A DNA stretch of 64,000 bases from the NCBI RefSeq assembly GCF_032854445.1, contig NC_088297.1, positions 22,889,127-22,953,126 of the forward strand. Direction: 5' to 3'. Origin of the DNA: Liolophura sinensis (taxonomy: Eukaryota > Mollusca > Polyplacophora > Chitonida > Chitonidae). Below the pieces are notes generated by a model, which saw only the letters and a list, made by a program, of their open reading frames with translations, was not told the origin of the DNA and did not search any database. The number at the start of each line of letters is the position of its first letter. Positions within the stretch are counted from its first letter, which is position 1. This document shows positions 2,005 through 64,000 of the stretch, in pieces. Both the position numbers and the translations under genes were made by a program.

Positions 2005-2334
2005 TTTCCATACGTAATATCAGGTTACACAATTGCCTGACATTCTTGTTTAACCATGTGATATCATTCTACTGACTTGTCTGTCAGCCACCCATAGGCC
2101 ACACCTGATTTTAGGATACTCATTTGATTAGGTACCTGTGATACTAGGTTAATCACTTGTCTGGTAGTCATCGCCGTGCCAAACGTGATATCAGGTTACT
2201 CACTTGTTTAACGGTCATTTTCTTCCCACACGTGGAATTAGGTTATTCACTTGTCTGACAGCCATCCCAGTTCCTCACGGGATATTAGGTTTCGCATTTG
2301 CCTGACATACACCTTGTGATATCAGGTTACTTAC
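2005..2334 (-). repeat. Degenerate array derived from the EGF-exon donor edge
   Basis: Reading the minus strand downstream of the exon at 2335-2460, the last exon bases and the donor (CTGTCAGACAAGTAAGTAAC) recur about every 60-70 bp. Four or five diverged copies are visible; their donor positions read GTGAAT, GTGAGT, GTGATT, ATGAGT and GTCAGT. Each copy also carries a block like CCTGATATCAC. The array begins directly at the real splice site and merges with the 48-bp array on its left. Confidence 0.8.
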
Positions 2335-2460
2335 TTGTCTGACAGTCTTGCCCGTCAAATTCTGGCTCACATCCTGTCCTACAAATATCTGCGCCACAGT
2401 AGATCTTGTCTGTGCAATGGCAATCCGCCCCACATCTTGTGGGATTTTCCGGATTGCAGT
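2335..2460 (-). CDS. EGF-like domain exon of an unidentified multi-cysteine gene
   Basis: An isolated 126-nt exon (42 codons, phase 1 at both ends) between an acceptor TTTAACAG and a donor GTAAGT. It encodes a cysteine-rich segment starting DCNPENPTRCGADCHC, then CRTGCEPEFDGQDCQ. The eight-cysteine spacing resembles the EGF repeats of MEGF/CED-1-like and scavenger-receptor proteins, which are often one exon each with symmetrical phase. No other exon of the gene was found to the right, so the other exons probably lie left of the window on one or both sides. An orphan or dead exon cannot be ruled out. Confidence 0.7.
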
Positions 2461-2539
2461 CTGTTAAAGCAATGAACAAGAAGTCAGTGGTGTGCTGGGT
2501 GAGGTTCTCTGCTGTATGTGGGAGATGTGGATGCTGGAG

Positions 2540-2602
2540 GTGGGGATGCTTGGGATGGGGGGTGGGGGGTGGTGGGGGTGGGGGTGGGTTGGGGGAGGGG
2601 TT
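2540..2602 (+). repeat. G-rich tract, possible G-quadruplex
   Basis: Runs of three to six G separated by single T or short spacers, in the intron just upstream (minus strand) of the EGF exon. Four or more G-runs in a row fit the usual quadruplex pattern. The C-rich complement lies on the transcribed side of the minus-strand gene. Confidence 0.6.
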
Positions 2603-3074
2603 AACCACAAGCCTCTCATATAATTGTCTCATCCTCAGTATGTTAATAACAGGCGTAATATTTGAAGTTTTCTCGTTTGGAAATGAAATGACCAGACCTC
2701 CATGGCGGATGTCGGTCCAGTGTCAAAGTGGCCGACTTATCATGACGGATCTCCCTGTTTCTGGGATTTCCCACACCTGATGATGTGACCGACATCAACT
2801 TACGGGCTTATTTACAAGTTACCCAAGAACTAGTCAATTTTCATTTAAGATATTTAAGATTAAATACTTTTCCGGGAATTTGAAATTCCATTTTCATTAG
2901 CATTTTGAAAATTATATTCTGTGCAAATTTGTTGTTGTCTATTGTTTATGATGGGTCAAATGAATACGTCGACTGCAGGGTATTAATCTTTTTATGTATT
3001 GCGGTAGGAGTTCCTTCCCATACGAACAATTTTCAGAGAGTACCTTTCCGCATTGCAAAGTAAGCAGTATTGTA

Positions 3075-3306
3075 GCATTATTTTTAACTTATTTGATTGG
3101 TGCTGTACGTCAATATTTAGCTTACACCACGGTGGCCAGCAATATGGTGGGCGGAAACTGGGCTCAGGAGAAGCCCATGACCATCCGCAGGCTGCTAGCC
3201 GACATTACCACGTACAGCTGGATAGGAAGTCAGCATGAGCTGAACTCACACCGACCGCACTAGGGGGAAGTTTCAGGGTCAGACACGCTAATCTCCTTGG
3301 CCATGA
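3075..3306 (-). mobile_element. tRNA-derived SINE (family 1), nearly full length
   Basis: Reverse copy of the commonest SINE here. In element orientation it has a tRNA-like head ending in a B-box (gagttcagctcatgct here, diverged), a middle block near ccgcaggctgctagc, and a 3' end close to caccaatcaaataaata. Heads in better copies have an A-box like TGGCCGAGAGG and a B-box GAGTTCAAGTCC, suggesting a leucine- or serine-type tRNA ancestor. Confidence 0.85.
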
Positions 3307-4534
3307 AGCATTTCAGCATATGCTTAAATATATTTTATGTATGTTCACAAAAAAAGGGTTGAAAGGACTGAAATACAAATCTTGTTGATTAAGGTCCTTT
3401 TGTTATTGCTTGTCGCCACAGATGTTTGGAAATTGAATGTTTTAAAATCCATCTATGTAGACGTCAAAAGTGCATAACGCCATAGGCAGTTTATGTTTAT
3501 GTAAAAGAAAAAAGAACATTTCATTAAGAGTGGTCAATTAATCAAATGCAAAAGGGTAAAATGTGACAAGTTCATTCATTCGCTATTAGTGTCGAAACCA
3601 TATATCCCTCAATATATACATAGGGTTCTAAGCTATTACATCTATTGTTTTATTGGGGTCCATCTATTCCAGGGATTCTAATCCATATTGTTCAGTGTGT
3701 TTTCCTGGTTCAGCCCCTCAGTGGGCGTGCACGTTGCTACTTTTGAAAAAAAATAAAAGTCAAAAAATATGTATAGCAAGAATGGTTTGCTCGCCAAAAC
3801 ACGTGTACGAAACCTTTGCAGGTCGGGAAAACTTGACACTCGTGGGCCCCATGCACCACAACTTTCCCCTAGAGCCGTGCCTTCAAACAATGAAAACTAT
3901 AGTTCAAGGTTATTTTATAGAACATTTAGTCCTCCCTCAGCTCTCTACATGTGCTCTATTATGTTAACTAACTATACTTGATCGGCGCTTAACAACATGT
4001 ATGCAAGAGCGTTTTCTTTTATACGACGGCGGGCAGCTCTGCAGGATGTGAAAGCCTGTTTGCAAGGGTAAACTACCGCCCGTTGGCAAGATACGGATGA
4101 ACTTTCCCACATGTAACGTACAGACACGCACTTAATAATGTTTGAAGAAAGTTGTCATCATCGAACGTTAAACTGTGCAAACGGGCGCACGAGCATCGCG
4201 GAGGGATTATTGTTACTACATCCCTATGAACGGTGAAAATCGCTGACCTGAGGTTAGAAACCGACAAACCGTAACACCTACATGTAACAACTGAAAGGAA
4301 ACCACTATGCCACGTGTAGATCCACTTTTGCATAAATTAATATAATATAATTATAACTATTCGGGCATAAAAACTAGTTTCGAACTAGTTCTCCAAAGGT
4401 CCCAGCAATCAGTCAGGAATTTAATTGCCCTTTCCAAACAACTTTTTTGGGAGAAATGTACATAAAAATATAAGGGTCATCAAGAGATATAAAATATGCC
4501 CCAAGAATGTTAAACAAAAAAAAAACAATTTCTT

Positions 4535-4770
4535 GTTTTGGTAAGTGAGTGAGAGAGTGATGAGGGTTTAATGTGGTACTGAATAATTTTTCAGTCATAT
4601 GTTGAAGGAATCCTTAGAGTGCATGTAATGTGCCTCCTTGTTGCAGGACGGATTTCTACAGCTCTTTTATCTAGTGCTGCTTCACTGAGACGATTTACCA
4701 AAGGCAACTACGCCGCCCCACCCAAGTCATTATACTGATTCGGGTCAACCAGTCGTTGCACCGTTCTACA
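4535..4770 (-). mobile_element. SINE family 2 fragment
   Basis: Shares the series tgagtgag, tttaatgtggtact, tttttcagtcatat, gtaatgtgcctccttgttgca and tagtgctgcttcactgagac with the copy at 41222-41565. The tRNA-like end is missing or too diverged to see. Confidence 0.75.
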
Positions 4771-7167: not shown

Positions 7168-7290
7168 TTGACACGTGTACCTGTACCATCATGTTAATGT
7201 CGACACGTGTACCTGTACTATCATGTTAATGTCGACACGTGTACCTGTACCATCATATTAATGTTGACATGAGTACCTGTACCATCAGGT
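7168..7290. repeat. 32-bp tandem repeat, about four copies
   Basis: Unit gacacgtgtacctgtaccat followed by catgttaatgtc, with a few changes. It lies in intergenic DNA and nothing coding is visible around it. Confidence 0.9.
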
Positions 7291-11140: not shown

Positions 11141-11154
11141 CACGTTATTTTTCA

Positions 11155-15000: not shown

Positions 15001-18000
15001 GAACAAGCACAGTTCATGCTTGAATTTGAACCACACAAGAAATTCTCTTTTTATATTTCTTCATAGTACGTGGGAAGATCTGCAGCAACCTGCGGATGGT
15101 CGTGGGTTTTCCCCAGGCTCTGCCCGGTTTCCTCCCACCATAATGCTGGCCGTCATTGTATAGGTAAAATATTCTGGAGTACGACGTAAAACACCAATCA
15201 AATAAATAAATATTTCATCATATATTTTCAAGCCATGAAAATATATGTGTTAGAGAAGTTACAATATATTATTGTATATCTATACAGACTTTATACAGTA
15301 TTCAACGCTCTTTACTTCAGCTTACAGCATATCGTGAAATTACAGAAATCTTGAACAACGCCGAGGATACTGCGGTCACAGTGATAAGGCAGGAAGTGAT
15401 GTCAGAAAATACAGACAATCCGTCTCAACTGTCTCTAATAATAATTTATACACATGCATTCTCTTTATCCAGAGGGGACATCCGTGGCTTGGTCGCTGTG
15501 ACTTAAAGTCCAGCTCATGGCGGCTTCCTCTCACACCGTACGTGTGAAGGTCTGCCAGCAGCCTGCGGATGGTCATGGGTTTGTCTCAGTCTCTTGCGAG
15601 TTTCCTCCCATCATAATGCTGGCCGCCGTCATATAAGTGAAATATTCTAGAGTACGGCGAAAAACATCAAATAAATAAATGGATAAAACATTATGTAGAG
15701 TATCAACAACACAATTCTAACCAAAACCTTAAACAATTTTATCGATGAATCCTGATTAAACAAGTCCGCGTGAGGAGAAAAGTGATGCGGCTAAGCCTTA
15801 ACAAGTGCGTCTCACAGGCTCCTAAGTCTCAGAGGCTTTCGCAGACGATCTGTCACTGTGAGCAGGTTGGCAATCGACCTTGGGGACAGGGGGACCTTTT
15901 CCCATCCAGTTGCAATTGGCCCTTTATGAAAAAAAATTAAGTTCTACACGGAATTGCAATTAATAACCACTGTCGCCCAATCATTCAGTCCAATCAGCCT
16001 GTTTATGTGTCTGTTATTACCGCCCATGTTGATTGTTTCGTTAACTGCCTTATTCCTGGAGTTCTATGGAATAACTTCAAATAACCGTGATCTTGTAGGT
16101 CTGAAATGGTTTTTGCTGAAAGTTTAAACCATTTATGTGGCTTATATGGCGGTTGAAATCTGAAAGATGTTATATTTAACAGCAACTGAAAGAAAGTTAA
16201 TAGATAGGGGGGAAAAAACTGGGCCGGATATGATTACGAAGAAATGTATACTGGCAGGCCAGTATGACATTCGATGACAAACAATAAGGATTAACAACGA
16301 CAACAATGAACCAGGATAATAACATTTTCGTGACATACCGGAACCAAAGGCTTAACATAGCCCAAAGTACAGATGTTTAAAATAATGAAAATTTATTTCA
16401 TAGATGTCATGGACAGATAGAACAATTTATTCAGTTTATGACTGAAAAAACCGGGTCGTCGATGGTTAAGTTAAAGCCGTTAACCAGGTAAAAGAATAAC
16501 ACACACTTTTAACCTCCACAATAAGAGGTCAGGGATGGGTCTGCTACGCCTTTTTATATAGAGACCCTCCTCCTGCTCAGGAGATATTATGATAATACAT
16601 GCGTATAATCAAACGTCTTTGAAAAAAAATAAAACAGCCTTGATTTTTTCTTAAAGGAGAAGAAAATTTAAATATCAATCAAATATCATTGAAAACAGTA
16701 TGCATTTCCTTGCAGGTGCAGACCATAAAATTTCGAATATGTACCTCAAGTTAATAAATTATAAATAAAGTCAGCGCCAAAATCCGATGTCAGCGACTCC
16801 ATTTTGGCCTGAGAACTAGTCCTGAAGTCTTCTGTGTTAGGGGAGAATTGCTGTCGGAAACAGCCGAAGTGCAGTTCGTACATTTCCGGTGGAACTCTTC
16901 TCCCCAGAGGGTAGCGAACAGTACAGTTCGTTTTCCACTTGGCGATCGGGAAATCGGAATGTTGGGTGTGGGTGTCGAGTCTACACAGCAAGCCGGCAGT
17001 TTTAACGGCTACCATTGGCTGAGAGGCAACACACCCCAAGCATAAAATATAGGGTGTTAAAGATGGAGGACGCGATGGACACAGCGATTTATGCCAGCTT
17101 TGCCGTTTTCAGGCTTTACGTGTATGGCGAGGAAAAATCGCAAAATGATGCAGCAGGCACCACCAGATAGAAAAAATGTGTCATGTTTTTAAGTTTTCTT
17201 CCCTTTTAAATGTTCATTGATAGTTGTTAGCCATCTATACAACATTGTATGTTTCAAACATATACGGACAAATAGTAAATATAAATCTCACCATCTTGGA
17301 ATGGTGTAAGGCTTGTTTTATGTATTACACATTCTGTGTTCAACTTTTTATGTATAGGATTGTGCTAAATAGACTTGTATTTCTTATTTGTGTTTGTATT
17401 TATGAGCCGTGTCTTCTAATAACCGTTATCTTTCATGTGTTTATGACATACATGTATTTGTCACAATACTGAGGCGCGTTGGCCACTGGAATGAAAAGTG
17501 CTAATATTATGTATATAACTGCATTGCATCGATTCCATGAACGAGACAACGTATAGGGCCGATTATGAAAGGGGGTTGTGCCCATTTCACTTCCCCAGCA
17601 TCTGACTGGTCTATCTCTCGGAAACATATGATGTCAGTCTTTGGCTCCGCCCTCAGAAACTATAATCTGGTCATGTGATCATGCTATAACTATTGCGTAA
17701 TATGTTCAGTGTCTCGTTTCATCCAGCACTTACAAAATTTGCTAGGTGAGGTTTCGAAAGGTATGAACTGTGGAGTATAGAGATATTCCCGCTACATAAA
17801 TACATAATGAAATTAATATCTCCTTGGCTTACGGCGCATGGCATGACGTAATTGGACAAATTTTCTCGCTTGTTGCAGATCTCTCCCCCTAATGAACACC
17901 GGATAATTCCGGAAATTAATTTTGATATCCCGTTCAGCCGCTTCACCCCCATAACCCGACCCTGGTACGAGAGATACCAGCCCGTCAGCTACAAACTTAC

Positions 18001-21000
18001 CAGTAGAAGCGGCACCGAGGAGGAACTCAGGGATATGATCAGACGCTGTAACGACGTCAACGTCAGGTATGTGACGTCATTAGGACGATAGACAGGTACG
18101 CACTATGTGGACGCCAGGTACATTACGTCAACGTCAAACACATGACGACACAAAGACGATAGACTACAGCAATGTCAGATACATTACATCAACGTCAGGT
18201 ACACCACGTTATGGTCAGGTACATGACGTCACAAGTCGGTAGACTTCACTAGTTACACTACATATACGTCGTTCCGCGCCGGTTCTTTCCTCGCTCTGAA
18301 AACAGCATGACACTATTATTGAGTATTATGCAAGCTGTGGACGCTTGTTTTCAGTTCAGGGCGGTTGCGTTGTATTTTGCAACGAGCGGTGTGTATTTTG
18401 CAATGTGCGGTGTGGTGTGTATTTTGCAACGTGCGGTGTGTATTTTGCAGCGTGCGGTGTGTATTTTGCAACGTGCGGTGTGTATCTTGCAGCGTGCGGT
18501 GTTTTCCTCCAACTTTTGCTCAGTTTCGTCTTCTCATAATCATGACTACTGTGATAAATTATGGGAAATAATCGAGACAATGGCGTCAAATACCAGACAA
18601 ATATATAGACACTACTTTGAGCCGAAAGCAAAATTAATCGGAATACATCAATGTTGGCAGAATCTACGTGGACGCCGTCATTAATCATATGGCCGGTGAG
18701 AACGCTTATGGAACCGGAAGTGCCGGAAGTATTTGGAACTCTGCATCTCTCAGCTTTCCTGGCGTGCCCTTTTCAGAGCACGATTTCCACAGCGGGTGTG
18801 GAATCGAGAATTATGGTGACGCGTACCAAGTGCAAAACTGCCGGTTGGTCGGATTGGTCGACCTTGACCTTGGCAAAGATTACGTCCGTGGGAAAATCGC
18901 CGATTACCTAAACAAGTTGACGGCCATGGGCGTGGCCGGCTTTCGCCTTGACGCATCAAAGCACATGCATCCAAACGATTTGATGGCAATACGAGCCAAA
19001 CTGCACAACCTGAACACCACTTACTTCCCGGCGGACAGTAAACCTTTCATATACCAGGAGGTTATCGACATGGGTGGGGAGGGTATATCGTCTAGCCAAT
19101 ACGTGGGTGTGGGTCGGGTGACGGAGTTTAAGTATGGTAAAGAGCTGGCACGGTTTTTTCGCGGTAACGTTCAGCTGAAACACTTGTCTGGCTTCGGGGA
19201 GTCCTGGGGCATGGTGCATTCCAATAACGCTGTAGTGTTCGTGGATAACCATGACAACCAGCGTGGGCACGGAGGGGGAGGCAACATCCTGACGTTCAGA
19301 GACTCACGCCTTTACAAAATGGCGAACGCCTTTATGCTGGCCTGGCCGTACGGCTTCACCAGGGTTATGAGCAGCTACTCGTGGCCAACACACTGGGAGC
19401 GCGGAAAGGACAAGAACGACTGGATCGGCCCACCGGCGTCTGGAAACCGCGTTCAAAATACCCTGGCTGTGACCATAACCGCGCAGGGCGAGTGCACCGG
19501 GGACTGGATCTGTGAACATCGTTGGCGTCAAATTGCAAATATGGTCGCTTTCCGGAACAGCGTGACGGGCCAAGGAGTCGACAATTGGTGGGACAACGGC
19601 GCGAACCAGGTGGCTTTTGGGCGAGGCGATAAGGGCTTCCTGGCCATTAATAACGACGGTTTCTGCATGGTTACCGAACTTGACACAGGGCTTCCGGCTG
19701 GCACTTATTGTGACGTCATATCCGGTGAGTTCAGAAGAACGCACTGTACCGGAAGAGTGGTACGCGTAGGGCATGATGGGAAAGCGTTGATGGATGTGGC
19801 CAACTGGTTGCCAGATCCCGTCCTAGCTATTCATGCAGGTGAGTAAATAATTTGTCAAGTTAAAACTGTATTTACTTATTTATTTCTGGGGTTTTTACCG
19901 ACAGCGCGCGATACAGATTGATGGATGCCTCAGTGCGTTGTACATAGCTTTGTTCAGTGGCTTCGAAGCCGTAAAAGTGACATGGTGGAAAAAAAATATT
20001 TTGGACGAGAAAAAAAATTACATAGTGAAAAAAACAATTTTGGGAGAGGAAATTGTTTTTCATAACCCCTAACCTCAAGGCCCCGACTTTTAAACAAATT
20101 TTATTTTCACCATGTCATTTTTCACTGCTCCGTAGGTGCCTAACTATGTCCGGCTATCTTCTGTCTTTTGGCTGATAAACCTAGTGTTCAGTGTTCAGTA
20201 CATATGTAAGATTTTTCCTTTGGGTCCAGGGGCTTAAAAATTCCTGCTATACGCCAATATTTAATTTTGCACACAATAACGTCCTGTACAAACATACTTA
20301 TAGATTCAGCCAGTAACTCTGTGGGTATATTCTTAGCATTATGTGAAGTTCTGTGAAGGACTGTGTGTGTGTGTGGGATGGTGGGGGGGGGGAAGGGGTC
20401 ATTTGTTAGACCTGAATGTTTCCTCTATTTGCTGATTGAATCTTATTTGTATTTGTATCATCTGGTTTGTTGAGGAGAGCCTCTGTAGTGGCCACTGGAT
20501 ATGGGCTTTCCTCGATATAAATATATGAAGCTGTGAACTAAAACATACACCGATAAATACGACAGCTGACAAAATAATAAGCGAAGTGGCAAATTCTTGA
20601 GTAAAATTAACTGAATAAATAAGTAAATTAAAATCACTAACACCGCTGTTTTTATGATAGTATTACGGTTGGTCAAGTAAACCTTCCTGGCCAAGGACAG
20701 TGGTATATTCCCGTCATTTATGTGTCCATTAGCCATAAATCTGGCCTCTATCAAAGACACGTATTTTGTGACATTATGCAGCTGTAACTACTCGGCACTG
20801 CTTGCCTGCTGAACAAATATGCTTCAGCCGGTATGCATACCGTATGGCTAATCTTATAGTCCTTTAGAATTACTCTGGTTCTCCAGCTATTGTAAACCAC
20901 TAAAATCAGGCGTCTTTTTGTAGTTGTATTTTGTATACATTTGCAGGATCGCGGATCAGTGACTCTGTTAGCCACGGCGCCGAGGCGGGTACACCTGACC

Positions 21001-24000
21001 TAAGACGTACGGTGATCCTCATAGAGAAGCAGACAACCCCCGGGCAGGACATCTTCATGAGGGGCGGGATTGACCACGCCCGGCGCCCAGGTGAATATCA
21101 TTGTCCGTCCGCCTTAATCTCGCGATATTACAGTTTCACGCGGTTTGGCTACGTCACACTTTGCATGGTTTAGGTTTTGAGAAGAAACTATGGAGGTGAA
21201 ATGAGCCGGTCTCATTAAACAGCCGCGTTATTACAGAGGTGAAATGGGTAGATCTCAGTAAATAGGTACGTTACTATGGAGGTGAAATGGGTATATTCAT
21301 TAAATAGCTACGTTACTATCGAGGTGAAATGGGTACATTTCATTAAACAGCTACGTTACTATAGAGATCAACCGGGTAGATCTCATTAAATTGCTGTTAC
21401 TGCGAATATTATCAATCAAGAGCTTTCCGCTTGAACTGATAAGTCATCACTGAACTATTCACAAAGTGAGCCACCAAGGACCAACCCTCCGTCGATCAGG
21501 TGGCAGACTCCAACACAGCGACTTGAAGTGGGAACGCTCATCCGTACAGGGTTAATGATTTATCAAAGCCTTTTAGGACTTTCTGCGATAGCGCAGCTCG
21601 CGGTTAACGCGCATTTAACCCGCTGTATTTGTAAGGAAAACATGAATCTAAGATTAAGAGTAAGTTGCACCTCGATACAAAGCTCTAACTCAAACACAGA
21701 ACTAAGTCTCACCTTTAACTTAAGGCCCAAAACAAACTTTTTAGTTAAAAATGGATACATTTTTAATTTCTGACTTGTGCCAAAGGACGTAAAGTTTACT
21801 CTGTTCTACCACTTGGGGATAATTTTAATTGCTGTTTTTTTATGCACGAATCGGTCGTGATCACTTATTTTATACACTCTCTTCGTTCTTTGGTACGTGA
21901 TGTTGAACGTGTTTTGGAAATTGATTTTGAGATTATTGACCCGGAATGTCCAGTTTGACAGAAATACCAATTTCTGTTTCGACGCCTAAATTCACAAAAC
22001 TTTGTGCGGCAAGTTTTCGTTGTAAATGACTTTGTCGTACGACACTTTAAAGATAGCACGACGTCATTTAGCCTCATTTGACTCAAATTTGATCATTATG
22101 ACGAGGCTTTACTGTACATGTGTCGTTTGTGTAGTCTGCAAGCAGAACCCAGTTGAGTGTGCGATCCCAGTGAGGTATCGACCTATTGGAACGGGTAGCC
22201 ATTACCAGAAATACATCGACTGGTGCAAGGGGGACCAGATGCTCGACTGGGAAGGAGCGGAATCCGGACAAGGCAAATACGAGAACATGTCACCCCACGG
22301 GTCCCCCCTGGTCTGGACAACAAATGACGTCACTAGCTCTGCTTATCAAAGCGTGAACAGGTGAGTTAGAGATGGCTTTAAATAATGACATTCTAGGTTC
22401 ATTTATAATGAACATTTTAGATGTTAACAGCTACCGGAAACTAACTGTAAACGCAGATGTGAAGTGATATCCAGCATATTTGCCTTAACGATGTATATAA
22501 ATGCTCCTAACAACATATGACAGAGGGGTAGGGGTTAGGTGGACGGGAGGGGGGGATTTTGAACTTGAATTGAAAACTTCATCAGAAGTTCAGATAATGA
22601 TAGATTTGTTTTAACGAAAATAGTCTTTTAGGATATATTCAAAGGAAAAGAAAACACTAAACAGATGAAAGACCATTTAACACTGTGTACATTTGATTTT
22701 TTTTAGAATTTGTCTAACTGACTTAACTGCATTTAAAACATGGGATTGTATGGTGGTCTGTTTGGGACCCCGGGGTATCAGTAACGTCACAGTAATATTT
22801 TTGGCTTGAAATAGTTCGTTTCCAGGACAGAATGTTGAATGCATTCATAGCTTTAAATGAAGATGCGTTTTGAATGATGACATATAGCAATTTATGTGTG
22901 TAAAGTTGTAAATAGCTGAAGTGACATCGCTGGTCCCAGTATAGTCAGAAAAGGCCACCATAAAATCCAACGTTTTAAATGCATTTTACTAGGTCGAAAA
23001 CTATTCTAATAAATAAATCATAAATTCCCGGACAATATTTAATGGTCTTTCGTCTTACACGTTCTTCATGCTAGTGTGTTCTTTGTCTTTAAGGCAAATG
23101 CAAATCAGCCTGCGGGGCACCTATTGTCACCTGCTTATTTTTTACCCAATTTTGTTACCCCTGCTGCACAATGATCGACGGATAGCTTTCAAACTTTGGG
23201 TCGACTAGGTCGCGGCTGTGAACGTTTGCGAGCGGCAAAGCTGGTTTTTGTGGGTCATGTGCTTCGTTGGCCATAATGAATTTCGTGCAAAACATTTAAA
23301 CATTTTCTTCTTACGAAGCAATGGACGGATTGCATAAAAAATTGGACTGGCCCAAGTTACAATAAGTTTGAAAGTAAGCATTCTCTTACGGTAAAAACTC
23401 TGGAAGTTCGTCGTAGGTGGAATATATGACGTCAAAGATAGTACCCAATTAGAAGATAACTTTTGTGTATTCTGGTGTATTTTGGGCCGATGATTCTGAA
23501 CTTGGTTTTGTTTTTTGTTTTGTTTACATAATTTATTTGACTTTTAATTACACAAATGTAAAACCCAGAAAGGTGAAACTTGCACCAAACTGTAGCCCGA
23601 GATGTATTCTTTTCTAAGTAACACTGATTTGAGCCACGACAGTTTTCTACCTAGAACTGACTGCACACCACTGTCCCTGGATCTTTGATGAATACTGTTC
23701 ATATGGCCCAGATCAATGAATTAACCTGTTTAATATAGGACAATTTGACATGGACTTTGTTTGTACTCAAAGGGATTTGACCTGACAGTCAACCTAGAGG
23801 TGCGAATTGCCGTATTAAAGGAAAATAGCCTACAATTTGTAAACGTTACCTATCTTATAGTACACAAAATGGCCAAAATGTCAACCCAATTCAAATGTGG
23901 AAGTTGACCAGACAGCTCTAACTGTAGTTACAACAGAAACTACCCGCTGCTCGGCGTTTGCATACGCGCATTTGTAGTTATGAAGGCTCAATGACCTAGG

Positions 24001-27000: not shown

Positions 27001-28253
27001 TATTACCTTAAATACTCGGAAGAATAAACAGACTCGTGTCCCTTGCCTATTTGTAGTTATAACTGAGATTACTGGCTACATAATGTTGCTATGCATTGCT
27101 CTGTTTCTACTTATAACTCAGATTACTGGCTACTTGATGTTGCCATGCATTGCTCTGTTTGCGTGTATGACGGAGAGCAGCCTTCTATCAAACAGGTGTT
27201 TACCTGTAGAGCCTACTGATGTATTGGTAGTTATAGAGGAATTTATCAAATATTTAATGTTGAAATGAATTGCTCTATTTCTAATTATTGTAAAAATTAC
27301 CACTTGATGTTGAGACATGATACTCTATCGTAGTTGTGATGGAAATTACTGCCTATTTGATTTTAAGACAGGATACTCTGTCATTGTTATGGTGGAAATT
27401 ACTGCCTACCTAATACTGACACGAAGTGCTCTATTTGTAATTATGTCGAAAACTACTGCCTACTTGATGTTGAGAGAGGATACCCTATTGTAGTTATGGA
27501 GATTACTGGCTACTTGATGTTTAAGATGACGCCGAAACTCTTGTGACGCCAGCCGCCATGTTAGTCGCCGTTATTGTTAGATGGTGGATCCCTATAGGCT
27601 GGCGACAACGATGTTTCCGCATAATCGTAAGCGCCAGTGGATTGTTCCATTTCTAGGTATGGTGACAATTACTGGCAAATTGGTGTTGACACGGATTCCT
27701 CTGTGTGTAGTTACAGTGGCAATTACGGGTACTTGATATTGACATGGATTGCTCTGTTTTCAGCTATGGTGACAATTACTGGCTTCTTGATGGCTTCACG
27801 TAGTTTTTGCTCTATTTGCAGATATGGCCGCAGTTACTTGTACTTGATGTTGACATGGATTGCTCTGTTTGTAGTTATGGTGGTAGTTGCTGGCTCCTTA
27901 ATGGATACTTGCTTTTTTTTTGCTCTGCTTGTAGTTATAGTGGTAATTATTGGGTACTTGATGTTGATGTTGATTACTCTTCTTGCAGTTATGGTGGCAG
28001 TTACTGGCTTCTTGACGTTGACATGGATTGCTCTAAGACGGAAAACGGATGGTTTGAGGTGAAGGCTGTCATAGCGAGTAGGAATGGAACTGAAGTCACG
28101 TGGGAGAGTAATCTCGTGCATAGCTCTGCAAATCCCGCAGGATCTGCCAGAGAGACACTTCCAGGCTGTTCGGCAAATCACATTGTAAAGTGTGGTAAGA
28201 TAAATGTGTTAAAATTCGGAAGACCCGACATCAAGATCAACAATTTCAGCTGA
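11986..28253 (+). CDS. Amy: Secreted chloride-type alpha-amylase (GH13) with C-terminal extension; whole gene
   Basis: Hydrolyses internal alpha-1,4 bonds of starch and glycogen; a secreted digestive enzyme. Coding exons: 11986-12019, 14795-14934, 17879-18066, 18661-19838, 20947-21090, 22135-22360 and 27989-28253. Junction phases (1,0,2,1,1,2) agree at every joint, and the sum is 2175 nt, or 724 residues plus stop. Catalytic residues are all present: D218 in [10 protein letters not shown]254 in IYQEVID and D319 in [10 protein letters not shown]. Chloride ligands are present too: R216, N317 and R355. The glycine-rich loop is GHGGGG. Residues after about 513 form an extra domain, which I recall from bivalve and other invertebrate amylases. 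Typical animal amylases are about 490-510 residues. I see no break, so the gene looks functional. Confidence 0.95.
12558..12720 (+). mobile_element. SINE family 1, 5' half, in amylase intron 1
   Basis: Starts ggggcctccatggccgagag (A-box) and has a B-box-like gagttcaaggtt, then ctggccttacgtgggaagg. The 3' half is missing. This is one of the clearest tRNA-like heads in the window. Confidence 0.88.
14795..14934 (+). CDS. Amy: Amylase exon 2: start of the mature enzyme
   Basis: Acceptor TATTTCAG, donor GTAAGA. Encodes the N-terminal barrel strand with [20 protein letters not shown] and ending [10 protein letters not shown], the standard opening of animal alpha-amylases. Ends in phase 0, matching exon 3. 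Confidence 0.95.
15066..15215 (+). mobile_element. SINE family 1, 3' part, in amylase intron 2
   Basis: Contains gcaacctgcggatggtcgtg, tttcctcccaccataatgct and the 3' end caccaatcaaataaataaat. The tRNA-like head is missing. Confidence 0.9.
15300..15477 (+). repeat. Dispersed repeat R3 next to a SINE
   Basis: Matches 43818-43985 in cagaaatcttgaacaacgc, cggtcacagtgataaggcag and atgcattctctttatc. A further partial relative lies at 13605-13680 (ctctacgctcgctttacatc). In both full copies a family-1 SINE follows in the same direction, so the two may travel as a composite. Confidence 0.6.
15478..15686 (+). mobile_element. SINE family 1, head-truncated
   Basis: Contains aaagtccagctcatggcggc, gcctgcggatggtcatgggt, catcataatgctggccgccg and the (AAATA) tail. 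The A-box end is weak. Confidence 0.88.
17879..18066 (+). CDS. Amy: Amylase exon 3
   Basis: Acceptor TTGTTGCAG, donor GTATGT. Encodes ISPPNEH through [19 protein letters not shown] to CNDVNV, a hallmark stretch of animal amylases lining the substrate groove. Phase 0 in and phase 2 out. Confidence 0.97.
18067..18245 (+). repeat. Degenerate repeats of the amylase exon 3 donor edge
   Basis: The exon ends AACGACGTCAACGTCAG then GTATGTGACGTCA. Downstream, the elements acgtcaacgtca, gtcaggtac and catgacgtca with gacgatagac recur several times over about 170 bp, with GTCAGGTAC repeatedly recreating a donor-like site. Copies are diverged and the period is irregular, so this is the weakest of the exon-edge arrays. 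Confidence 0.6.
18360..18505 (+). repeat. 21-bp minisatellite in amylase intron 3
   Basis: About seven copies of gtgtattttgcagcgtgcgg(t). Each carries TTTTGCAG or TTTTGCAA, so several copies look like splice acceptors about 150-300 bp before the real one at 18660. Confidence 0.9.
18661..19838 (+). CDS. Amy: Amylase exon 4: catalytic core and domain C
   Basis: Acceptor TGTTGGCAG. The 1178-nt exon carries [12 protein letters not shown], all three catalytic acids and the chloride and calcium site residues, then the C-terminal beta domain. The frame stays open through the donor CAG/GTGAGT to a stop at 19846, so an unspliced form would end HAGE, giving an amylase of the usual length. The strong donor and matching exon 5 favour splicing onward. 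Confidence 0.97.
20947..21090 (+). CDS. Amy: Amylase exon 5: start of C-terminal extension
   Basis: Acceptor TACATTTGCAG, donor GTGAAT. Encodes a linker, then [20 protein letters not shown] and IDHARRP. This matches the first part of the extra domain I recall from mollusc amylases. Phase 1 in and 1 out, 48 codons. Confidence 0.85.
21188..21395 (+). repeat. 43-bp tandem repeat in amylase intron 5
   Basis: Four or five copies of gaggtgaaatgggtagatct followed by cattaaacagctacgttacta. Not derived from a neighbouring exon as far as I can see. Confidence 0.85.
22135..22360 (+). CDS. Amy: Amylase exon 6: C-terminal extension, middle part
   Basis: Acceptor TTTGTGTAG chosen because only it keeps the phase from exon 5; donor GTGAGT. 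Encodes [15 protein letters not shown], then [20 protein letters not shown] and SPLVWTTND. Rich in tryptophan and aromatic residues, as in carbohydrate-binding folds; binding itself is inference. Confidence 0.85.
23985..24067 (+). mobile_element. SINE family 1, B-box fragment
   Basis: Contains ggagcctctcaccaatgcgg, then gagttcaagtccagctcatg, the best B-box of the window. Both ends are truncated. Confidence 0.8.
25325..25620 (-). mobile_element. SINE family 2 copy
   Basis: Shares tttttcagtcacatgacaac, atgccgaagacaccaaacat, ttatactgacaccgggccga and the B-box-like gtttcatcccgggtctcccg with the copy at 38026-38364. In reverse orientation the tRNA-like end lies at about 25560-25620. Confidence 0.78.
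27030..27988 (+). repeat. 54-bp array derived from the amylase exon 7 acceptor edge
   Basis: About 15-18 diverged copies of a unit made of a short pyrimidine tract, the AG acceptor and the first 46 bases of exon 7 (TTATGGTGGCAGTTACTGGC and on to GATTGCTCT). The exonic GCTCT of one copy joins the TTTGTAG of the next, so exon bases serve as its pyrimidine tract. AG acceptors survive in at least nine copies, for example near 27709, 27762, 27820, 27874 and 27934. A break with other sequence lies at about 27530-27640. The last copy is the true exon start. Confidence 0.92.
27989..28253 (+). CDS. Amy: Amylase exon 7: end of the C-terminal extension
   Basis: Acceptor TTCTTGCAG. The split serine codon AG/T with exon 6 gives [20 protein letters not shown], then NGWFEVKAV and [19 protein letters not shown], stop TGA at 28251. 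A donor-like GTAAGA at 28195 could lead to a further exon, but the read-through end is simplest: it completes the domain and makes the full CDS a multiple of three. Confidence 0.82.
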
Positions 28254-29299: not shown

Positions 29300-48380
<19,081 letters not shown>

Positions 48381-50540: not shown

Positions 50541-51299
50541 TTATGAGCTCATAACCATGGCTGAAGTATGTGCTAAAGTTACATACGCGTGTACAGTTTG
50601 CAAAGGTGCAGCTCAGAGAACATTTTTCAATGAGTTTTAGTTTTCAATGAGGTGCCCGCCCGTGTATGTTTTCAGCCTCTCTAGGTGTCATGTGCGTGCA
50701 TACCTGTATTGTGAATGATGAGCGCGACATCCTGTTCCTTAACACAGCTTTAAATAAGAAAGTTTAAACGGGATATGACAGGTTCATATCCACAAAAAGG
50801 ACTACGCCTACAATGAACATCCAAACTAGGTCATCAATAGTGGAGTTTCGAGTGTTAATTCTTATATCGTTGAAGGTAGAAAAAGTCATAAAATAAATCA
50901 GAGTTGACTAATGATAGAGAAAACTGTGAAGATGAACGTTTGTGATCTTGAAGTTTCTAAACGAATGGGGTGTCATTTGTGCCTCTAGAAAAAGGTGAGA
51001 AAGGTTATTAGTAAGTCAGTTTCAACGAAAGTTGCCTAACATTTTTTACCAGTCACATGACACATGAGGACTGTTTTTACCTCTGACCACAAAGATTTCC
51101 AAATTGAAACTGCCCTATTCACAGCCAGTGTCAGTAACATCACCCTTTTGTTAAAGATGTTTTAAGCCTGGGCAAAGGTTTAAAAAGTATATAAAATATA
51201 ATCAGTTAAACATGAACAATAAAATGAGGTGGTTCAACCATAGCTTCTGTAAACTCTTTCCTTTCATAAAAATGGCATATCATATTTAACATTTGAGAG

Positions 51300-51890
51300 A
51301 TTAAGAGTAAAATACATGGTAAGAGTAAAAGACATGGTATGAGTAAAAGACATGGTATGAGTAAAAGACATGGTAACAGTGAAAGATATTGTATGAGTAA
51401 AAGACATGGCATGAATAAAAGACACGGTAAGAGTAAAAGACATGATGTGAGTAAAAGACACGGTATGAGTAAAAGACACGGTATGAGTAAAAGACATGGT
51501 AACAGTGAAAGATATTGTATGAGTAAAAGACATGGCATGAATAAAAGACACGGTAAGAGTAAAAGACATGATATGAGTAAAGACGTGGTAAGAGTAAAAG
51601 ACATGGTAACAGTAAAAGACATGGTAACAGTAAAAGACATGGCATGAGTAAAAGACATGGCATAAGTAAAAGACATGGTATGAATAAGAGACATGATATG
51701 AGTAAAAGACGTGGTAAGAGTAAAAGGCATGGTAAGAGTAAAAACATGGTAAGGGTAAAAAACATGATATGAGTAAAAGCCAAGGCATGAATAAGAGACA
51801 TGGTATGAGTATAAGACGTGGTAAGAGTAAAAGACATGGTATGAGTAAAAGACATGGTAAGAGTAAAAGACAGGATAAGAGTGAAAGACA
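51300..51890. repeat. 18-bp minisatellite, about 33 copies
   Basis: Unit gagtaaaagacatggtat with variants. As 18 is a multiple of 3, all frames stay open and give minus-strand open frames up to 239 codons of low-complexity, hydrophobic repeats. I regard these as by-products. Confidence 0.95.
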
Positions 51891-52311
51891 TAGAAAAGAA
51901 ACCATATTTTGGGTATGTTTTTCACGTGAAAATAGTTTTCTCGGATGAGCTAGGGAAATAATATTAATAATTACATATTATATACTATAACTATAATTAC
52001 GTAAAATATATTTAGGCGTACAAACTTGAAGAAAATTGCATCAGATTGCTTCACTAAAAAGGCTATATATAGTGTTTGACTACCATAGAACTGAACAATC
52101 TGTAGCCAGTATGAAAACTAATTTAGAAACATTTACTGTTTGAAACAATGTTGAAACGGAGTTTGCTAGTGGTGAGGTTTATTAAACTTAACTTGATTCA
52201 ATTTACATGAAATGATGCAAACACTATATATTAGTTCAGCAAAGAAAGGACACAAAAATGAATATTATTGTTTAATAAATATGTGACCTAATGAAGTCCA
52301 AACAAATGTAA

Positions 52312-58705: not shown

Positions 58706-61564
58706 TATAAAGCTGTTCTCGTATGGTACATTTATAAAGCATATATATAAATATGTCCTGCCAAATATGTCAGTTGTCAAAATGACATTTTTTGACCTCA
58801 TTTCGAGTTTTACGCACCACCAAACCCCTTCTAAATTTAACCCAAACAAGTTCCCATGACATGCTCACATGCTTTTGCGCCAGGGCTAGTTCCTTTGCAG
58901 ACAAACCAAATGTACTTGTCAGGCAAAGATGAAGTCCGTTCAACAGGAAACACACTACTCTAATTCCCTAAACCTTTTCGCATGTGAAAGATCAACTTTT
59001 AGTGCAATTTGTGCACATTCACCTGTATAATTTGATTTTGAAGGTAAAACTACATTGGTTAGATAGATCAAGTGTAATTGTATCTATATAGAATAATGCC
59101 TTTAAAATATGTATGAATAAACACCCTTGCAAACATGCGAAACAGTTTGAGAATTACAGAATATGCCATAAAGGACAGAAGGAAATCACAAAAACTCCGA
59201 AACTAAGAGTTCTATGTTAGTTTATTTTTTCATCTTTAAAACTGTCAAAGGTGAATCAACAGTCTATACTGTTATATATTGGTAGATTAAAAAACAAACA
59301 AAAAAAAAAAAAAACAAAGTGTGCTACTGCCCGCAAGGCATGTTTCTATTTACAATCGTACGCTGTCATCCCGTCTTATTTCTATCAAAATAGAGCTCTG
59401 AATTTTAACAGCACGGCACTGTATCTAACGCAGCACTAAAGGTACATATTTAATACAATTTCAAATCGAAGTAAAACGCAATAATTCCAACTTGCCAATG
59501 TATGTGACGAGGCGATGACAAAATGGTAGATGTTATATACACTTTCATTTACATGTCTGCATGACCACTCACTGAGCTTGGACCTGTGAACGTGTCGCGG
59601 TGATTGGCTAATTCAAATGACAAATAAAACTTTAACAATTCATGCCAATCACGGCTCACGTTCAGTGCGACCAATCAGGCGGGGCCTTGCACGTAGAAAA
59701 ACGTCAATTACACAGTCAAACTGGTAATGATTGGTTAACTTCATAGTTCGGGGAAATCTGAGAATGGCAGCGTACACTATATGCAGCCAATGACAACACT
59801 CTACAAGCTTATAGTGTAACAAAATATGAACAGCATATTATAATGAAGACAAAACATAGATTCTATACAAAAATGCTAAAATATCCGTGTCAGGTCCCAC
59901 CTTTCGCACGTGTATAAAATAAATACATCACCTAGAACATAGACTATATATATAAATACACGGAGGGCATATAAAACGACCTGACTCCAGACACGCAATG
60001 AGCAGAAACATTAAAAACCATCTATAATAGACAATAACTAAAGCCACGAGTTTGATCTCCAGGACTAGGGACAAACATATATAAGAGTATAGGTGTATAT
60101 GTTGTCGCCCTGAGGCAATCACCCTCTCCATGAAAAAGGTAACGTTTTTTTTTTTTGTCAAATTCAACACAGATTACAATGGGCTCCATTTTTGTCTGTC
60201 ATCGTCACGTTTAGTCATTTGATGACACGAGACGAATGAACTAAAAAAAAAAATTAAAAAATAACAAAAAGAGGCTAACATTATTTAACTACTACACACA
60301 TGGGACACAAGCCACTATACATGCAACATGACATCCTCATGGAAACAGGTGAATGCACATTGCACTAAGACAAAGATGATGTCTGCTTCATCTGCCACTA
60401 GGAGGCATGGCTGTGCAGCGCCCCCTGGTGAGAGCTTACTGCTACGGGACAAAAAAAAGCACAGCGCAACATAAAGAGACCACAAGCTGTCACTAACGTA
60501 GCAACTGCTCCAATTCATTATGACAAGTGTAATTATTCATAAAAAAAGACAATCAACATGGAATGAATAGTTAAAAGAAATGTAAAAAAAAATATATTGA
60601 AACACAGAGAGTTAAACATCCTCAAATTCATGGGAAAATGAAAAAGTGAAAAAAAAATGAAAAAAAAAAAACATAACAAAGTAGAAAATACCACAGTATG
60701 AAATTTGTGGTAGTTACATTTAGTCCTTGTATTCTGAAGCATCAAATCGTTTAGATGTGGACAGACACATTGCCACATCAAATGTACGATCCACATTCAG
60801 AGGGGTTGGAGATGGTAATTCATGGAGAAATGTACATATGATGAGCAGAAGTGAACAATGGTCAGAAAATTATCAAGGAATTTACAGATAACCTTGATTG
60901 GTTTACAATACTCGAGACTCTCTATCCAGCTGAGATTGAAAAGAGAAGCTCCTCAAGAGTTAGCAAAACTTTCAAACTGGTGGCCATATGTACAGGATCC
61001 CTTGGAAACCCATACCTGTGCCCACAACCTAATACAAGTCTGGGGGTACAATATTCGATGATGTGCCACGTACCAGACCAGGTTAGCTGTTGGAAGAGCC
61101 AGCTTCCTCCCCGACAGATTCCAGAGATCACATCTCGCCACATCTCAGATGCTGCCAGGGTAAGTTCTGCAGCAGCATATCAAATGACTTTTCTTTAGAG
61201 AATGCAATAATTAAAAAAAAAAAAAAAAAGACACTAAAGGCCTACTGTTTATCAGGAATGTAGAAAAAGACAGGGTAGGTCAATGCTGGACTGACCTTGT
61301 AGACGGCTGAAAACCTGAGGAGTTTTACAGTATTTGTGATTAATAAATGAATGCAGGGGAGGACAATCCAGTCATTTCCCTACACGCACGCACCTTATTC
61401 ATGCATGAAAAAAACTTGTGCATTTATCAATTTCATTAGTCCTTAACGCCGTAGTCAGTTTCAAGAGTGGTTGCCACTCACTTTGAGGACAGTAGTCACC
61501 TTCACTGGGGTACAAAATCCATTCTCATTTAGTGAGAGTTGTTTTTTCTGCATACAGCATAATG

Positions 61565-61700
61565 AATTTATTGCTTGGCCATTTCGGGTTTAAAACGTTT
61601 ATAGGTATTGGCCATTTGGGGTTTTGAACGTTTATAGCTATTGGCCATTTGGGGTTTTATAGGTATTGGCCATTTGGGGTTTTGAACGTTTACAGGTATT
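61565..61700 (-). repeat. 33-bp repeat and AATAAA signal in the paralog's 3' flank
   Basis: Four copies of attggccatttggggttttg plus aacgtttatag. A minus-strand AATAAA at 61567-61572 lies 1.36 kb past the paralog stop at 62931 and is a candidate polyadenylation signal; the repeats would then be the end of the 3' UTR. Confidence 0.55.
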
Positions 61701-62930
61701 GGGGGAAATCCCCATAATGTGAATGATTAAAGCTTATGTTCTCAATCAGAAGCACATATGGCTCGTCCATTTGTGAAGAAAAGCATATTTATGCTATCTG
61801 AAGATACAGTATTTATGACAACACAAGTTAAGTGTGGAATGATTCGAGCAACAATGTGACATTGTTTAAAGACAAGGCATTCAATTTATCATTATCATCA
61901 AGAGTTCTCTCCCTTTTGCATTGAATATTAACATTCCTCAGAACAGGTGAAAAAAACGTCACTCACCAATGTGAGATGTTTATGTGTATATGAGCAGATA
62001 CTGAGAGCTATGGAATTACACAAAACATCATTCATTTTGTCTGTCCAAACATCATCCACAGACATTAAAAGATCAGACTTTATCATCCCATAGCTCACAA
62101 AGATAGTCTTCAGACAAGGTTTGAGATTTAACATGAACCATTCAAAGTTACACATATTTGTACATGTAATCTAAACTTTTCTTCTTCACTACCATATATC
62201 TCCAAATGCATGAATGAACAAAATAAATGCTTAAACAATTCATTAGTTAAATGTTTTTTCTGGACACTTGATGAAAACTAGCTGTGGGTCTGGTTGAGAA
62301 AACTGCATAGCCTTAGGATACAGACAAAATGACGTGATGAGCTCTAAACTTCTTACCAGTTCTCATGAATATGTATGATCTACATGCATGGATAAAAACT
62401 GTTCTCACTTGTCACACACAATGTAAAAATCTCACTTGATACAATCACCAACATTGTGACGAGCAGATGTAAAGGAATTTGGTTTTGCCACAACTCTCTT
62501 ACAAATATCGCACATTGTACGTGAATGATTTGAAATACAGTATATCATCTTAGGATCAAAATTCTGGTGTAATATACAACTGCTAGTGATGATGTTCTAT
62601 CTACCTGTGGGTTTATCTTGGATTTACACACAAGCCCACCTGAACATCCATATCCACTCATGTTTTCCTTCAAAAACATTTGGTTTTGAACAACTGTGAA
62701 AACCCACTCATTTCTTTAATTATCCTAAACATGTCAGTACTTTGACAAAGCAAATTTTTTTCAATCCACAACACACTCATCGCAAGAAAAAAAAAAAAAA
62801 AAAACACAGAACAGAGAAACCAAACCCCTGGAGCAAAAATGCTCGTCATTCTTCCAAAAAACAGGTTACAGCTGTTTGAGAATATTAAGGCAGCTTCCAG
62901 AGAAGTATTGAGCAAGGTCAAGGGCGGATA

Positions 62931-63126
62931 TTACACTGTCGACTGGTTCATATCCCGTCCTTTCCGCCCGCCATAGTTGCCAATAAAAGAACCGTCTTCG
63001 TTGAACTTGCTAGAGTCGGGTTCCCCATACTCATCCAGACTGTCAGTGTCGCCCCCTAGTGGTGGGTCATTGGTAAGAGATACCTGATCCGGGTTTCCGT
63101 AAGGCTTTTTCTCGTCGGGGGCATCA
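62931..63126 (-). CDS. Last exon of a paralogous neuroglian-like receptor
   Basis: Acceptor TTCTCTTTAG, stop TAA at 62931-62933, 196 nt, the same size and phase as exon 13 at 29300-29495. Encodes DAPDEKKPYGNPDQVSLTND, GGDTDSLDEYGEPDSS, FNEDGSFIGNYGG and ends GRDMNQSTV. FIGNY matches the FIGQY ankyrin-binding motif of L1CAM, neurofascin and neuroglian; STV is a class I PDZ ligand. The 3' flank also resembles that of the first gene (cttctctggaag region). The other exons lie beyond the window. Confidence 0.93.
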
Positions 63127-63314
63127 CTAAAGAGAAAAAAATTAATAAATTACTATAAAAAATAAAAAATCTAAGTAAAAACAACAAAAGAACATGCAAT
63201 TCCATTATGACTCAGCAAGGGCTAGTGATTCGACAGCCACTTGTCTATTCATTTGGCTGCTTCCTTATACATCATTCTGGATAAAATTAACACACCAAAA
63301 TATTCAGCTCCTTT

Positions 63315-64000
63315 CATTTGTGTTCTTACACTCTGGACAGGTCTGACTTGGCTATTCTAACTAGATTACATACATCCAGGACAGATCTGACTTGGCTGTT
63401 CTAACTAGATTACATACATCCAGGACAGGTCTGACTCAGCTGTTCTAACTAGATTACATACATCCAGGACAGGTCTGACTCAGCTGTTCTAACTAGATTA
63501 CATACATCCAGGACAGGTTTGACTTAGCTGTTCTAACTAGATTACATACATCCAGGACAGGTCTGACTCAGCTGTTCTAACTAGATTACATACATCCAGG
63601 ACAGGTCTGACTTGGCTGTTCTAACTAGATTACATACATCCAGGACAGGTCTGACTTGGCTGTTCTCACTAGATTACATACATCCAGGACAGGTCTGACT
63701 CAGCTGTTCTAACTAGATTACATACATCCAGGACAGGTTTGACTTAGCTGTTCTAACTAGATTACATACATCCAGGACAGGTCTGACTCAGCCGTTCTAA
63801 CTAGATTACATACATCCAGGACAGGTCTGACTCAGCTGTTCTAACTAGATTACATACATCCAGGACAGGTCTGACTTGGCTGTTCTAACTAGATTACATA
63901 CATCCAGGACAGGTCTGACTTGGCTGTTTTAACTAGATTACATACATCCAGGACAGGTTTGACTTGGCTGTTCTAACTAGATTACATACATCCAGGACAG
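63315..64000 (-). repeat. 44-bp array in the paralog's last intron
   Basis: About 15 nearly identical units of catccaggacaggtctgact plus cagctgttctaactagatta cata. It is the same family as the array at 29735-30720 (cctggacaggtctgactcag, ctgctctaactagtgtac). On the minus strand each unit has CCTGTCCTGGATGTATGTAA, a donor-like site. It runs off the right edge, where the paralog's exon 12 should lie. Confidence 0.95.

What the first reader, a model, noticed from the sequence alone, without database searches (positions are those of the whole stretch)
2005..64000. Exon-edge minisatellites: introns repeatedly filled by copies of the neighbouring exon's border and splice site
Six intron arrays (2005-2334, 18067-18245, 27030-27988, 29735-30720, 35690-36062, 37560-38830) abut, or nearly abut, an exon. 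Their units resemble that exon's last or first bases plus its donor or acceptor. They involve three unrelated genes and both strands. Five are donor-side and one acceptor-side. A seventh array, at the paralog (63315-64000), has the unit type of the exon 12 array. Chance arrays would not keep including splice sites. A process that starts at exon borders, such as slippage, repair of splice-linked breaks or re-copying of RNA, is inference. Selection for decoy sites is another possibility.
Basis: partly seen in the sequence, partly recalled or inferred. Interest (0 to 1): 0.88.

Follow-up and report, generated by a model that had tools for sequence, protein, structure and literature searches.

The report
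Exon-border minisatellites ('mirages') in a chiton
In a stretch of a chiton's genome, several introns contain tandem copies of the edge of the neighbouring exon together with its splice site, a kind of repeat previously named 'mirage' in amphioxus; it matters as a possible raw material for new introns and altered splicing, seen here in a mollusc.

Summary
All six arrays contain diverged direct copies of the adjacent exon edge with its splice site (five 5' sites, one 3' site; three genes; both strands). Each matches its own border best of 38 (scores 31-88; next best 21-23), and 0 of 200,000 shuffled assignments reach the observed sum. The window is very probably Liolophura sinensis, a chiton. 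The seventh array is homologous to the fourth, in the matching intron of a paralog.

The phenomenon is known: such repeats were named "mirages" in amphioxus Adh3, globins and PGBD5 (PMC3087553, PMC3902484). Ten paper searches, most with capped lists, listed none from a mollusc. Best reading: DNA-level tandem duplication across a border, tolerated because the exon-proximal site still defines the exon, then amplified by unequal exchange while selection holds the exon copy. Arrays span borders more often than random placement predicts (5 of 13 against 0.77 expected, P=4e-4, post hoc); whether through birth or better survival there is unresolved. The own-genome search did not complete.

The parts
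2335..2460 (-). Predicted cysteine-rich (EGF-like by eye) exon 'GA' whose donor border is repeated in array R1
   Evidence: Translation and splice signals; no Pfam or PDB hit, so exon status is inference
2005..2334 (-). Array R1: about 47-bp units carrying the last ~11-25 exon bases, donor and intron start; abuts the exon
   Evidence: Rank 1 of 38 borders, score 44 against next 21; 4 matched copies, GT kept in 4 of 4
17879..18066 (+). Alpha-amylase exon AM2, source of R2
   Evidence: P0130 residues 57-121
18067..18245 (+). Array R2: degenerate copies of the AM2 donor border; abuts the exon
   Evidence: Rank 1 of 38, score 35 against next 23; TRF finds only 39 bp of it
27030..27988 (+). Array R3: about 54-bp units carrying the acceptor and the first ~46 bases of the last amylase exon; acceptor-side
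   Evidence: Rank 1 of 38, score 60 against next 22; AG kept in 6 of 9 matched copies
27989..28250 (+). Last amylase exon AM6 (C-terminal extra domain), source of R3
   Evidence: P0130 residues 637-724, 100%
31089..31167 (-). L1/neurofascin-like exon NG11, source of R4
   Evidence: P0123; splice sites
29712..30736 (-). Array R4 in NG intron 11: units with CCAGGG-TGTAAGTACAC plus non-border sequence
   Evidence: Rank 1 of 38, score 31 against next 22 (29712-30720); 10 GTAAGT against 0.33 expected by shuffling
30759..31024 (.). Dispersed repeat lying between R4 and its exon
   Evidence: blastn finds 14 other aligned stretches in the window
36063..36206 (-). L1/neurofascin-like exon NG8, source of R5; its last 56 bases are unit 0 of the array
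   Evidence: P0123; unit alignment
35690..36062 (-). Array R5: 65-bp units, 56 exon-derived plus 9 donor/intron bases; five full copies 80-85% identical to the genuine border
   Evidence: Rank 1 of 38, score 88 against next 22
39024..39209 (-). L1/neurofascin-like exon NG6, source of R6
   Evidence: P0123 covers 39025-39090; the rest by P0122 homology
37560..38830 (-). Array R6: 34-bp units with about the last 20 exon bases, mostly plus GT; donor beyond GT lost
   Evidence: Rank 1 of 38, score 34 against next 22
38956..38978 (-). Single exon-proximal copy of the NG6 border with intact GTAAGT
   Evidence: score 41
38022..38358 (.). Repeated sequence (in pieces) interrupting R6
   Evidence: blastn finds 4 other aligned stretches in the window
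63315..64000 (-). Array R7 in the homologous last intron of the neighbouring L1-like paralog; 44-bp units, TRF 95% matches
   Evidence: Homologous to R4, score 274 against null maximum 31
62931..63126 (-). Last exon of the L1-like paralog (P0122)
   Evidence: tblastn 98%

Best explanation
These are 'mirage'-type exon-border minisatellites in a chiton. Inferred steps: (1) a DNA-level tandem duplication (slippage, template switching or break repair) copies a short stretch spanning an exon-intron border; (2) it is nearly neutral, because the exon-proximal splice site still defines the exon and everything beyond it becomes intron; (3) slippage and unequal exchange multiply, homogenise and shuffle the copies, while purifying selection keeps only the exon copy fixed, so the array stays anchored to the exon and recognisable for a long time; (4) copies decay without coding constraint, and some retain usable donors or acceptors as latent alternative sites. 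Shown here: the match of each array to its own border, direct orientation, contiguous exon|intron junctions in the copies, lack of coding constraint in R5, and homologous arrays in the matching introns of two paralogs. Inferred: slippage and exchange as the engine, anchoring as the reason for the excess at borders, and normal splicing in vivo.
For: Own border ranked first of 38 for 6 of 6 arrays and 0 of 200,000 assignment shuffles. 6 of 37 borders with direct intronic copies beyond all nulls. Copies carry exon and intron parts contiguously. R5 copies differ from the exon about equally at codon positions 1, 2, 3 (18/95, 15/90, 23/95) and 1 of 5 has an in-frame stop. R4 and R7 are homologous in matching introns of two paralogs, while the other 20 of 21 array pairs score 18-26, near their shuffled controls. 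Annotated L. sinensis proteins use the genuine borders at the five mirage junctions inside the two annotated genes (sequences; mapping; splice sites). The same anatomy, including 5' and 3' borders and retention of AG/GT in many but not all copies, is described for amphioxus.
Against: No RNA reads, polymorphism or second haplotype were available, so neutrality and normal splicing are untested. Random tandem duplication alone predicts fewer border-spanning arrays than seen (5 against 0.77 expected). R5 keeps +1 to +8 invariant in 5 of 5 copies (column permutation P=0.01), which neutral decay does not predict, though it is one array examined after the fact. Similarity of R5 copies to the exon is nearly flat with distance (0.85, 0.82, 0.82, 0.83, 0.80), so a gradient expected from continual reseeding by the exon copy is not evident. 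A BLASTX survey of amylase introns in 55 species, molluscs among them, reports no trace of intronised duplicated exons in its putatively youngest introns (PMC3096672, passage), though such a search may miss short border copies.
Confidence: 0.82

Rival explanations
1. Exon borders are active birth sites: splicing- or transcription-linked DNA breaks or R-loops at splice sites start the tandem duplications.
For: Excess of border-spanning arrays, 5 of 13 against 0.77 expected, P=4e-4; donor borders hit more often than acceptors, 5 of 18 against 1 of 20 (borders as).
Against: The window was chosen for this feature; the donor bias is small and I did not test it formally; non-spanning arrays also sit near borders (2521-2601, 60 bp from the border GA_3ss; 44992-45185, 19 bp from NG1_3ss); survival of anchored arrays predicts the same excess.
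Confidence: 0.2
2. The copies are selected as decoy or alternative splice sites that tune splicing.
For: R5 keeps GTAAGACA in 5 of 5 copies; the 4 R1 and 5 R5 copies score within the range of this window's 17 true donors then scored.
Against: R6 keeps a complete donor in 1 of 21 matched copies; R2 keeps the GT in 3 of the 5 repeat sites scored and in 1 of 2 aligned copies; annotated proteins use the genuine borders.
Confidence: 0.1
3. RNA-mediated re-copying (reverse transcription or reverse splicing) makes the copies.
For: Units include splice sites.
Against: Copies are contiguous exon|intron DNA in direct tandem; I saw nothing in spliced form but made no dedicated search for it; unspliced pre-mRNA cannot be excluded.
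Confidence: 0.03
4. The host introns themselves arose by Rogers-type tandem duplication of exon sequence, and the arrays are the remains.
For: Proposed for amphioxus globins (PMC3087553). R2's second-best border is the opposite end of the same intron (AM3_3ss, score 23; uncorrected p=0.016).
Against: The opposite border does not match for R4 (NG12_3ss, rank 37 of 37), R5 (NG9_3ss, p=0.96) or R6 (NG7_3ss, p=0.61), nor is it among R3's three best. R1's opposite exon is not in my annotation. I did not compare intron positions across species.
Confidence: 0.06
5. Chance or artefact: ordinary intronic minisatellites that happen to resemble exon edges.
For: The window holds 34 merged arrays covering 13.5 kb, and it was chosen after inspection.
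Against: R5 alone is 80-85% identical to the border over 65 bp in five copies.
Confidence: 0.02

Closest known systems
'Mirage' minisatellites of amphioxus (Adh3, Canestro et al. 2002, seen only as cited in PMC3087553; globins BflGb6 and BflGb9; PGBD5 and troponin C in PMC3902484)
   Same: [quoted passage not shown] genuine borders used.
   Different: Host is a mollusc, not a cephalochordate; six arrays at 38 examined borders in 64 kb; diverged arrays, two of them split or set apart from the exon by repeated sequence; homologous arrays in paralogous introns. Length and somatic instability reported for amphioxus could not be tested.
Intron gain by tandem duplication (Rogers model; Drosophila cases PMC2891723 and potato RdRp PMC4974935, passages read)
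   Same: Tandem duplication of short genic segments, including segments crossing an intron-exon boundary.
   Different: Here no new intron or exon is evident; arrays enlarge introns on one side.
Introners and other intron-generating transposable elements (PMC9860276, search listing and start of abstract only)
   Same: Repeats carrying splice sites inside introns.
   Different: Each array here is made from its own exon; arrays do not resemble one another apart from the paralogous pair.

Membership tests
Mirage minisatellites | Tandem repeats whose unit spans an exon-intron boundary | tested here: met
   6 of 6 arrays, own border first of 38; contiguous junctions
Mirage minisatellites | Both 5' and 3' boundaries can be affected | tested here: met
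   Five donor borders, one acceptor border
Mirage minisatellites | Many but not all copies keep AG/GT | tested here: met
   Matched copies, the flank of the genuine border left out: GT in R1 4 of 4, R2 1 of 2, R4 6 of 7, R5 5 of 5, R6 18 of 21 (full donor in 1 of 21); AG in R3 6 of 9. R2 by motif: 3 of 5 sites scored; a sixth, shifted site listed was left out
Mirage minisatellites | Regular splicing of the mRNA is not disturbed | tested here: inconclusive
   Annotated proteins P0123 and P0130 use the genuine borders, but no RNA reads were examined
Mirage minisatellites | Copy-number instability between haplotypes and in soma | not testable with these tools
   No second haplotype or reads held
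Mirage minisatellites | Concerted evolution inside the array, edges excluded | tested here: inconclusive
   R7 is homogeneous (TRF 95% matches); R5 shows at most weak two-unit periodicity (lag 1: 0.80, 0.72, 0.80, 0.78; lag 2: 0.82, 0.75, 0.88) and a decayed far unit (0.60)
Rogers-type intron gain | Duplicated AGGT-bearing segment supplies both ends of the intron | tested here: not met
   For R3-R6 the opposite border does not match beyond chance; R2 marginal (AM3_3ss, score 23, p=0.016); R1 not testable
Introners | One repeated element family in many introns | tested here: not met
   20 of 21 array pairs score 18-26, near shuffled controls; only the paralogous R4/R7 pair is clearly related

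The most novel reading that the evidence does not exclude
Exon-border minisatellites are not an amphioxus oddity but a recurrent bilaterian feature. In the chiton about one examined exon border in six carries one, because splice-site borders either nucleate tandem duplications or preserve them through anchoring to a selected exon copy. They would then be a standing, long-lived supply of duplicated splice sites from which new introns, shifted intron ends and alternative exons can be drawn.
Probability: 0.3. Interest if true: 0.78.

Novelty: new member of a known kind. Interest (0 to 1): 0.56.

Why it matters
Mirages were discussed in the papers I read as a possibly general cephalochordate feature and as a route to intron gain. 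Finding them in three genes within 64 kb of a chiton suggests that the phenomenon arose more than once or is broadly overlooked. A mollusc genome could then offer many independent arrays for testing whether exon borders attract tandem duplication or merely preserve it, and whether duplicated splice sites are used. Gene annotation is affected too, since arrays can carry several credible donors beside the real one.

Tried and rejected
Chance resemblance was rejected by the border-assignment and intron-null tests. Amphioxus as the source organism was considered because of the mirage literature and rejected: predicted proteins match Liolophura sinensis. A shared mobile element behind the arrays was rejected: arrays are unrelated apart from R4/R7 (two further pairs, R1/R5 and R2/R3, exceed the best of 40 shuffles by 2 and 4 points, and the real pairs were scored on both strands but the shuffles on one). 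Inverted copies were looked for; 1 of 37 borders exceeded its null, by one point, taken as chance. Conservation of the donor core was tested column by column in R5 only; in the other arrays I only counted what the copies keep. Tracing whether the mirage introns are old positions failed: the amylase intron survey (PMC3096672; outline with abstract, part 1 of 2 of the Results and found passages read) gives positions in figures that are not held and leaves out the C-terminal domain. Naming the gene of the exon at 2335-2460 failed. An earthworm paper on intronic minisatellites (PMC12783039, passages) and a gastropod haemocyanin intron paper (PMC7931591, passages) described no exon-border arrays in what I read. 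Of the chiton genome correction note (PMC12441733) I saw the listing and outline only. The founding amphioxus paper (PMC117041) is not held, so it is cited through PMC3087553.
Full report
WHAT WAS CHECKED. The finding claims that six intronic tandem arrays are built from the border of the neighbouring exon, splice site included. I first fixed the genes. A protein predicted from the minus strand between 29.3 and 45 kb matches 'neurofascin-like' of Liolophura sinensis (P0123: 100% identity over 57% of my query) and, at 77%, 'neural cell adhesion molecule L1-like' of the same species (P0122). Pfam finds Ig domains and the Bravo_FIGEY intracellular region. tblastn places the P0123 exons in the window, and the last exon of P0122 at 62.9-63.1 kb. 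The plus-strand gene is an alpha-amylase: P0130, 'pancreatic alpha-amylase-like [Liolophura sinensis]', maps onto seven exons from 12.0 to 28.25 kb, the mismatches lying where alignments run past exon ends (the first exon, 12 residues, has E=0.051). P0122, P0123 and P0130 are all listed with a contig of 27,489,247 bases. L. sinensis is a chiton. The third gene contributes one predicted minus-strand exon, 2335-2460, with no family hit.

IS IT REAL. Twenty-one exons give 38 borders, 18 donors and 20 acceptors. Each array, with the border's own 60 bp masked, was aligned locally to all 38 borders: the own border is first in 6 of 6, with scores 44, 35, 60, 31, 88 and 34 against next-best scores of 21-23; 0 of 200,000 random draws of six borders reach the observed sum, and 1,000 shuffles of each border reach at most 24-30. 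The margin is smallest for the 29.7-30.7 kb array (31 against a shuffled maximum of 29). In an earlier run with 37 borders, the other 24 merged arrays in the window gave 0 of 24 with the nearest border ranked first; one (60635-60671, A-rich) ranks its second-nearest border, 15.7 kb away, first. Taking each border against the 1.5 kb (or less) of intron beside it, 6 of 37 beat all of 248-270 null scores in direct orientation; three others have uncorrected p between 0.015 and 0.04 (NG1_3ss, AM3_3ss, AM4_3ss); in inverted orientation one (NG10_5ss, 23 against 22) exceeds its null. In one search the acceptor of amylase exon 5 was misplaced by 11 bp and the donor of the first amylase exon was missing; one search has both.

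ANATOMY. R5 is the clearest. Its 65-bp unit runs from exon base -56 to intron base +9; five full copies follow the genuine border at 80-85% identity. The exon-derived part shows no coding constraint: 18 of 95, 15 of 90 and 23 of 95 differences at codon positions 1, 2 and 3, and one of five copies has an in-frame stop. The first eight intron bases are invariant in 5 of 5 copies; a column permutation gives P=0.01. The smaller Fisher value printed there treats the copies as independent, and I do not rely on it. Among matched copies, R1 keeps GT in 4 of 4, R2 in 1 of 2, R4 in 6 of 7 and R6 in 18 of 21, of which only the copy nearest the exon has a full donor; R3, on the acceptor side, keeps AG in 6 of 9. 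By motif, R2 keeps GT at 3 of 5 sites scored. These matches were found by similarity to the border, so the counts lean towards kept sites. R4 is separated from its exon by a dispersed repeat, and R6 is interrupted by other repeated sequence. R7, in the last intron of the paralog, is homologous to R4 (274 against a null maximum of 31 in 285 draws), so the array was present before the two genes separated or was later converted between them. The paralogs' last exons differ at 5 of 23 fourfold sites; if the array is ancestral, such arrays can persist for a long time. The other 20 of 21 array pairs score 18-26, near their shuffled controls; two (R1/R5 and R2/R3) exceed the maximum of 40 shuffles by 2 and 4 points.

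IS THERE AN EXCESS AT BORDERS. In the two annotated gene spans there are 13 merged arrays; if their founding units were placed at random, 0.77 would span a border, against 5 observed (P=4e-4). R1 and R7 lie outside these spans and were left out. This is a calculation made after the feature had been noticed, in one window, with unit lengths read from the arrays (47 assumed for R2) and with the slightly misplaced amylase exon 5 border; it suggests an excess but does not establish one for the genome. The whole-genome search that could have settled it did not complete (14 identical requests).

HOW IT PROBABLY WORKS. Copies are direct, tandem and carry the exon|intron junction uninterrupted, which points to duplication of DNA rather than re-use of spliced RNA. 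A duplication across a border leaves the exon-proximal splice site in place, so the exon is unchanged and the rest becomes intron; inside an exon it would usually be harmful. Slippage and unequal exchange then multiply the copies. Selection holds the exon copy, which anchors the array and keeps its origin visible. That anchoring, rather than any special chemistry at splice sites, is my preferred reason for the excess, but I could not separate the two, and R5 shows no clear gradient of similarity away from the exon. All of this paragraph beyond the first sentence's observations is inference.

WHAT IS KNOWN. Tandem repeats spanning exon-intron boundaries were named 'mirages' in amphioxus Adh3 (Canestro et al. 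2002, seen only as cited), were described for two globin genes (abstract and passages of PMC3087553) and noted in PGBD5, Adh and troponin C (a passage of PMC3902484). Those authors report that regular splicing is not disturbed, that many but not all copies keep AG/GT, that arrays vary in length, and that such repeats might give rise to new introns. The chiton arrays meet the anatomical criteria. Splicing in vivo and length instability remain untested. Against generality, a BLASTX look for duplicated exons in amylase introns of 55 species reports no trace of intronised copies in the youngest introns (PMC3096672, passage), though it may miss short border copies. Ten full-text searches listed no mirage outside cephalochordates; most lists were capped, I judged by titles and opening lines, and the library lacks most subscription journals.

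VERDICT. It is a new member of a known kind, in a phylum for which I found no report. The useful open question is whether exon borders give birth to these arrays or only preserve them.

Noticed in passing
41758-44972 (minus strand): The database protein P0123 starts inside exon NG6, although five upstream Ig-coding exons (NG1-NG5) with good splice sites lie in the window; the gene model looks truncated at its 5' end.
   Followed up: partly
20947-28250: The amylase has an extra C-terminal domain also found in Lingula and, among 120 listed of 195 hits, in several molluscs, sea urchins, Branchiostoma floridae, and amylases and other proteins of marine bacteria.
   Followed up: partly
30759-31024 and other places in the window: A dispersed repeat (SINE-like by eye) with 14 other aligned stretches in the window (blastn).
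   Followed up: partly
1-1998: A large 48-bp minisatellite with higher-order structure lies directly beyond R1; the nearby exon border GA_5ss ranks only 15th of 37 against it.
   Followed up: partly
35690-36118: R5 units 1, 3, 5 and 0, 2, 4 seem to alternate in their -1 base, hinting at two-unit duplication steps.
   Followed up: partly
18067-18660: R2's second-best border match is the opposite end of the same intron (AM3_3ss, score 23), marginal.
   Followed up: no
51209-51977: An 18-bp minisatellite of about 33 copies leaves long stop-free frames on the minus strand, the longest 741 bp; probably only a result of a stop-free unit.
   Followed up: no
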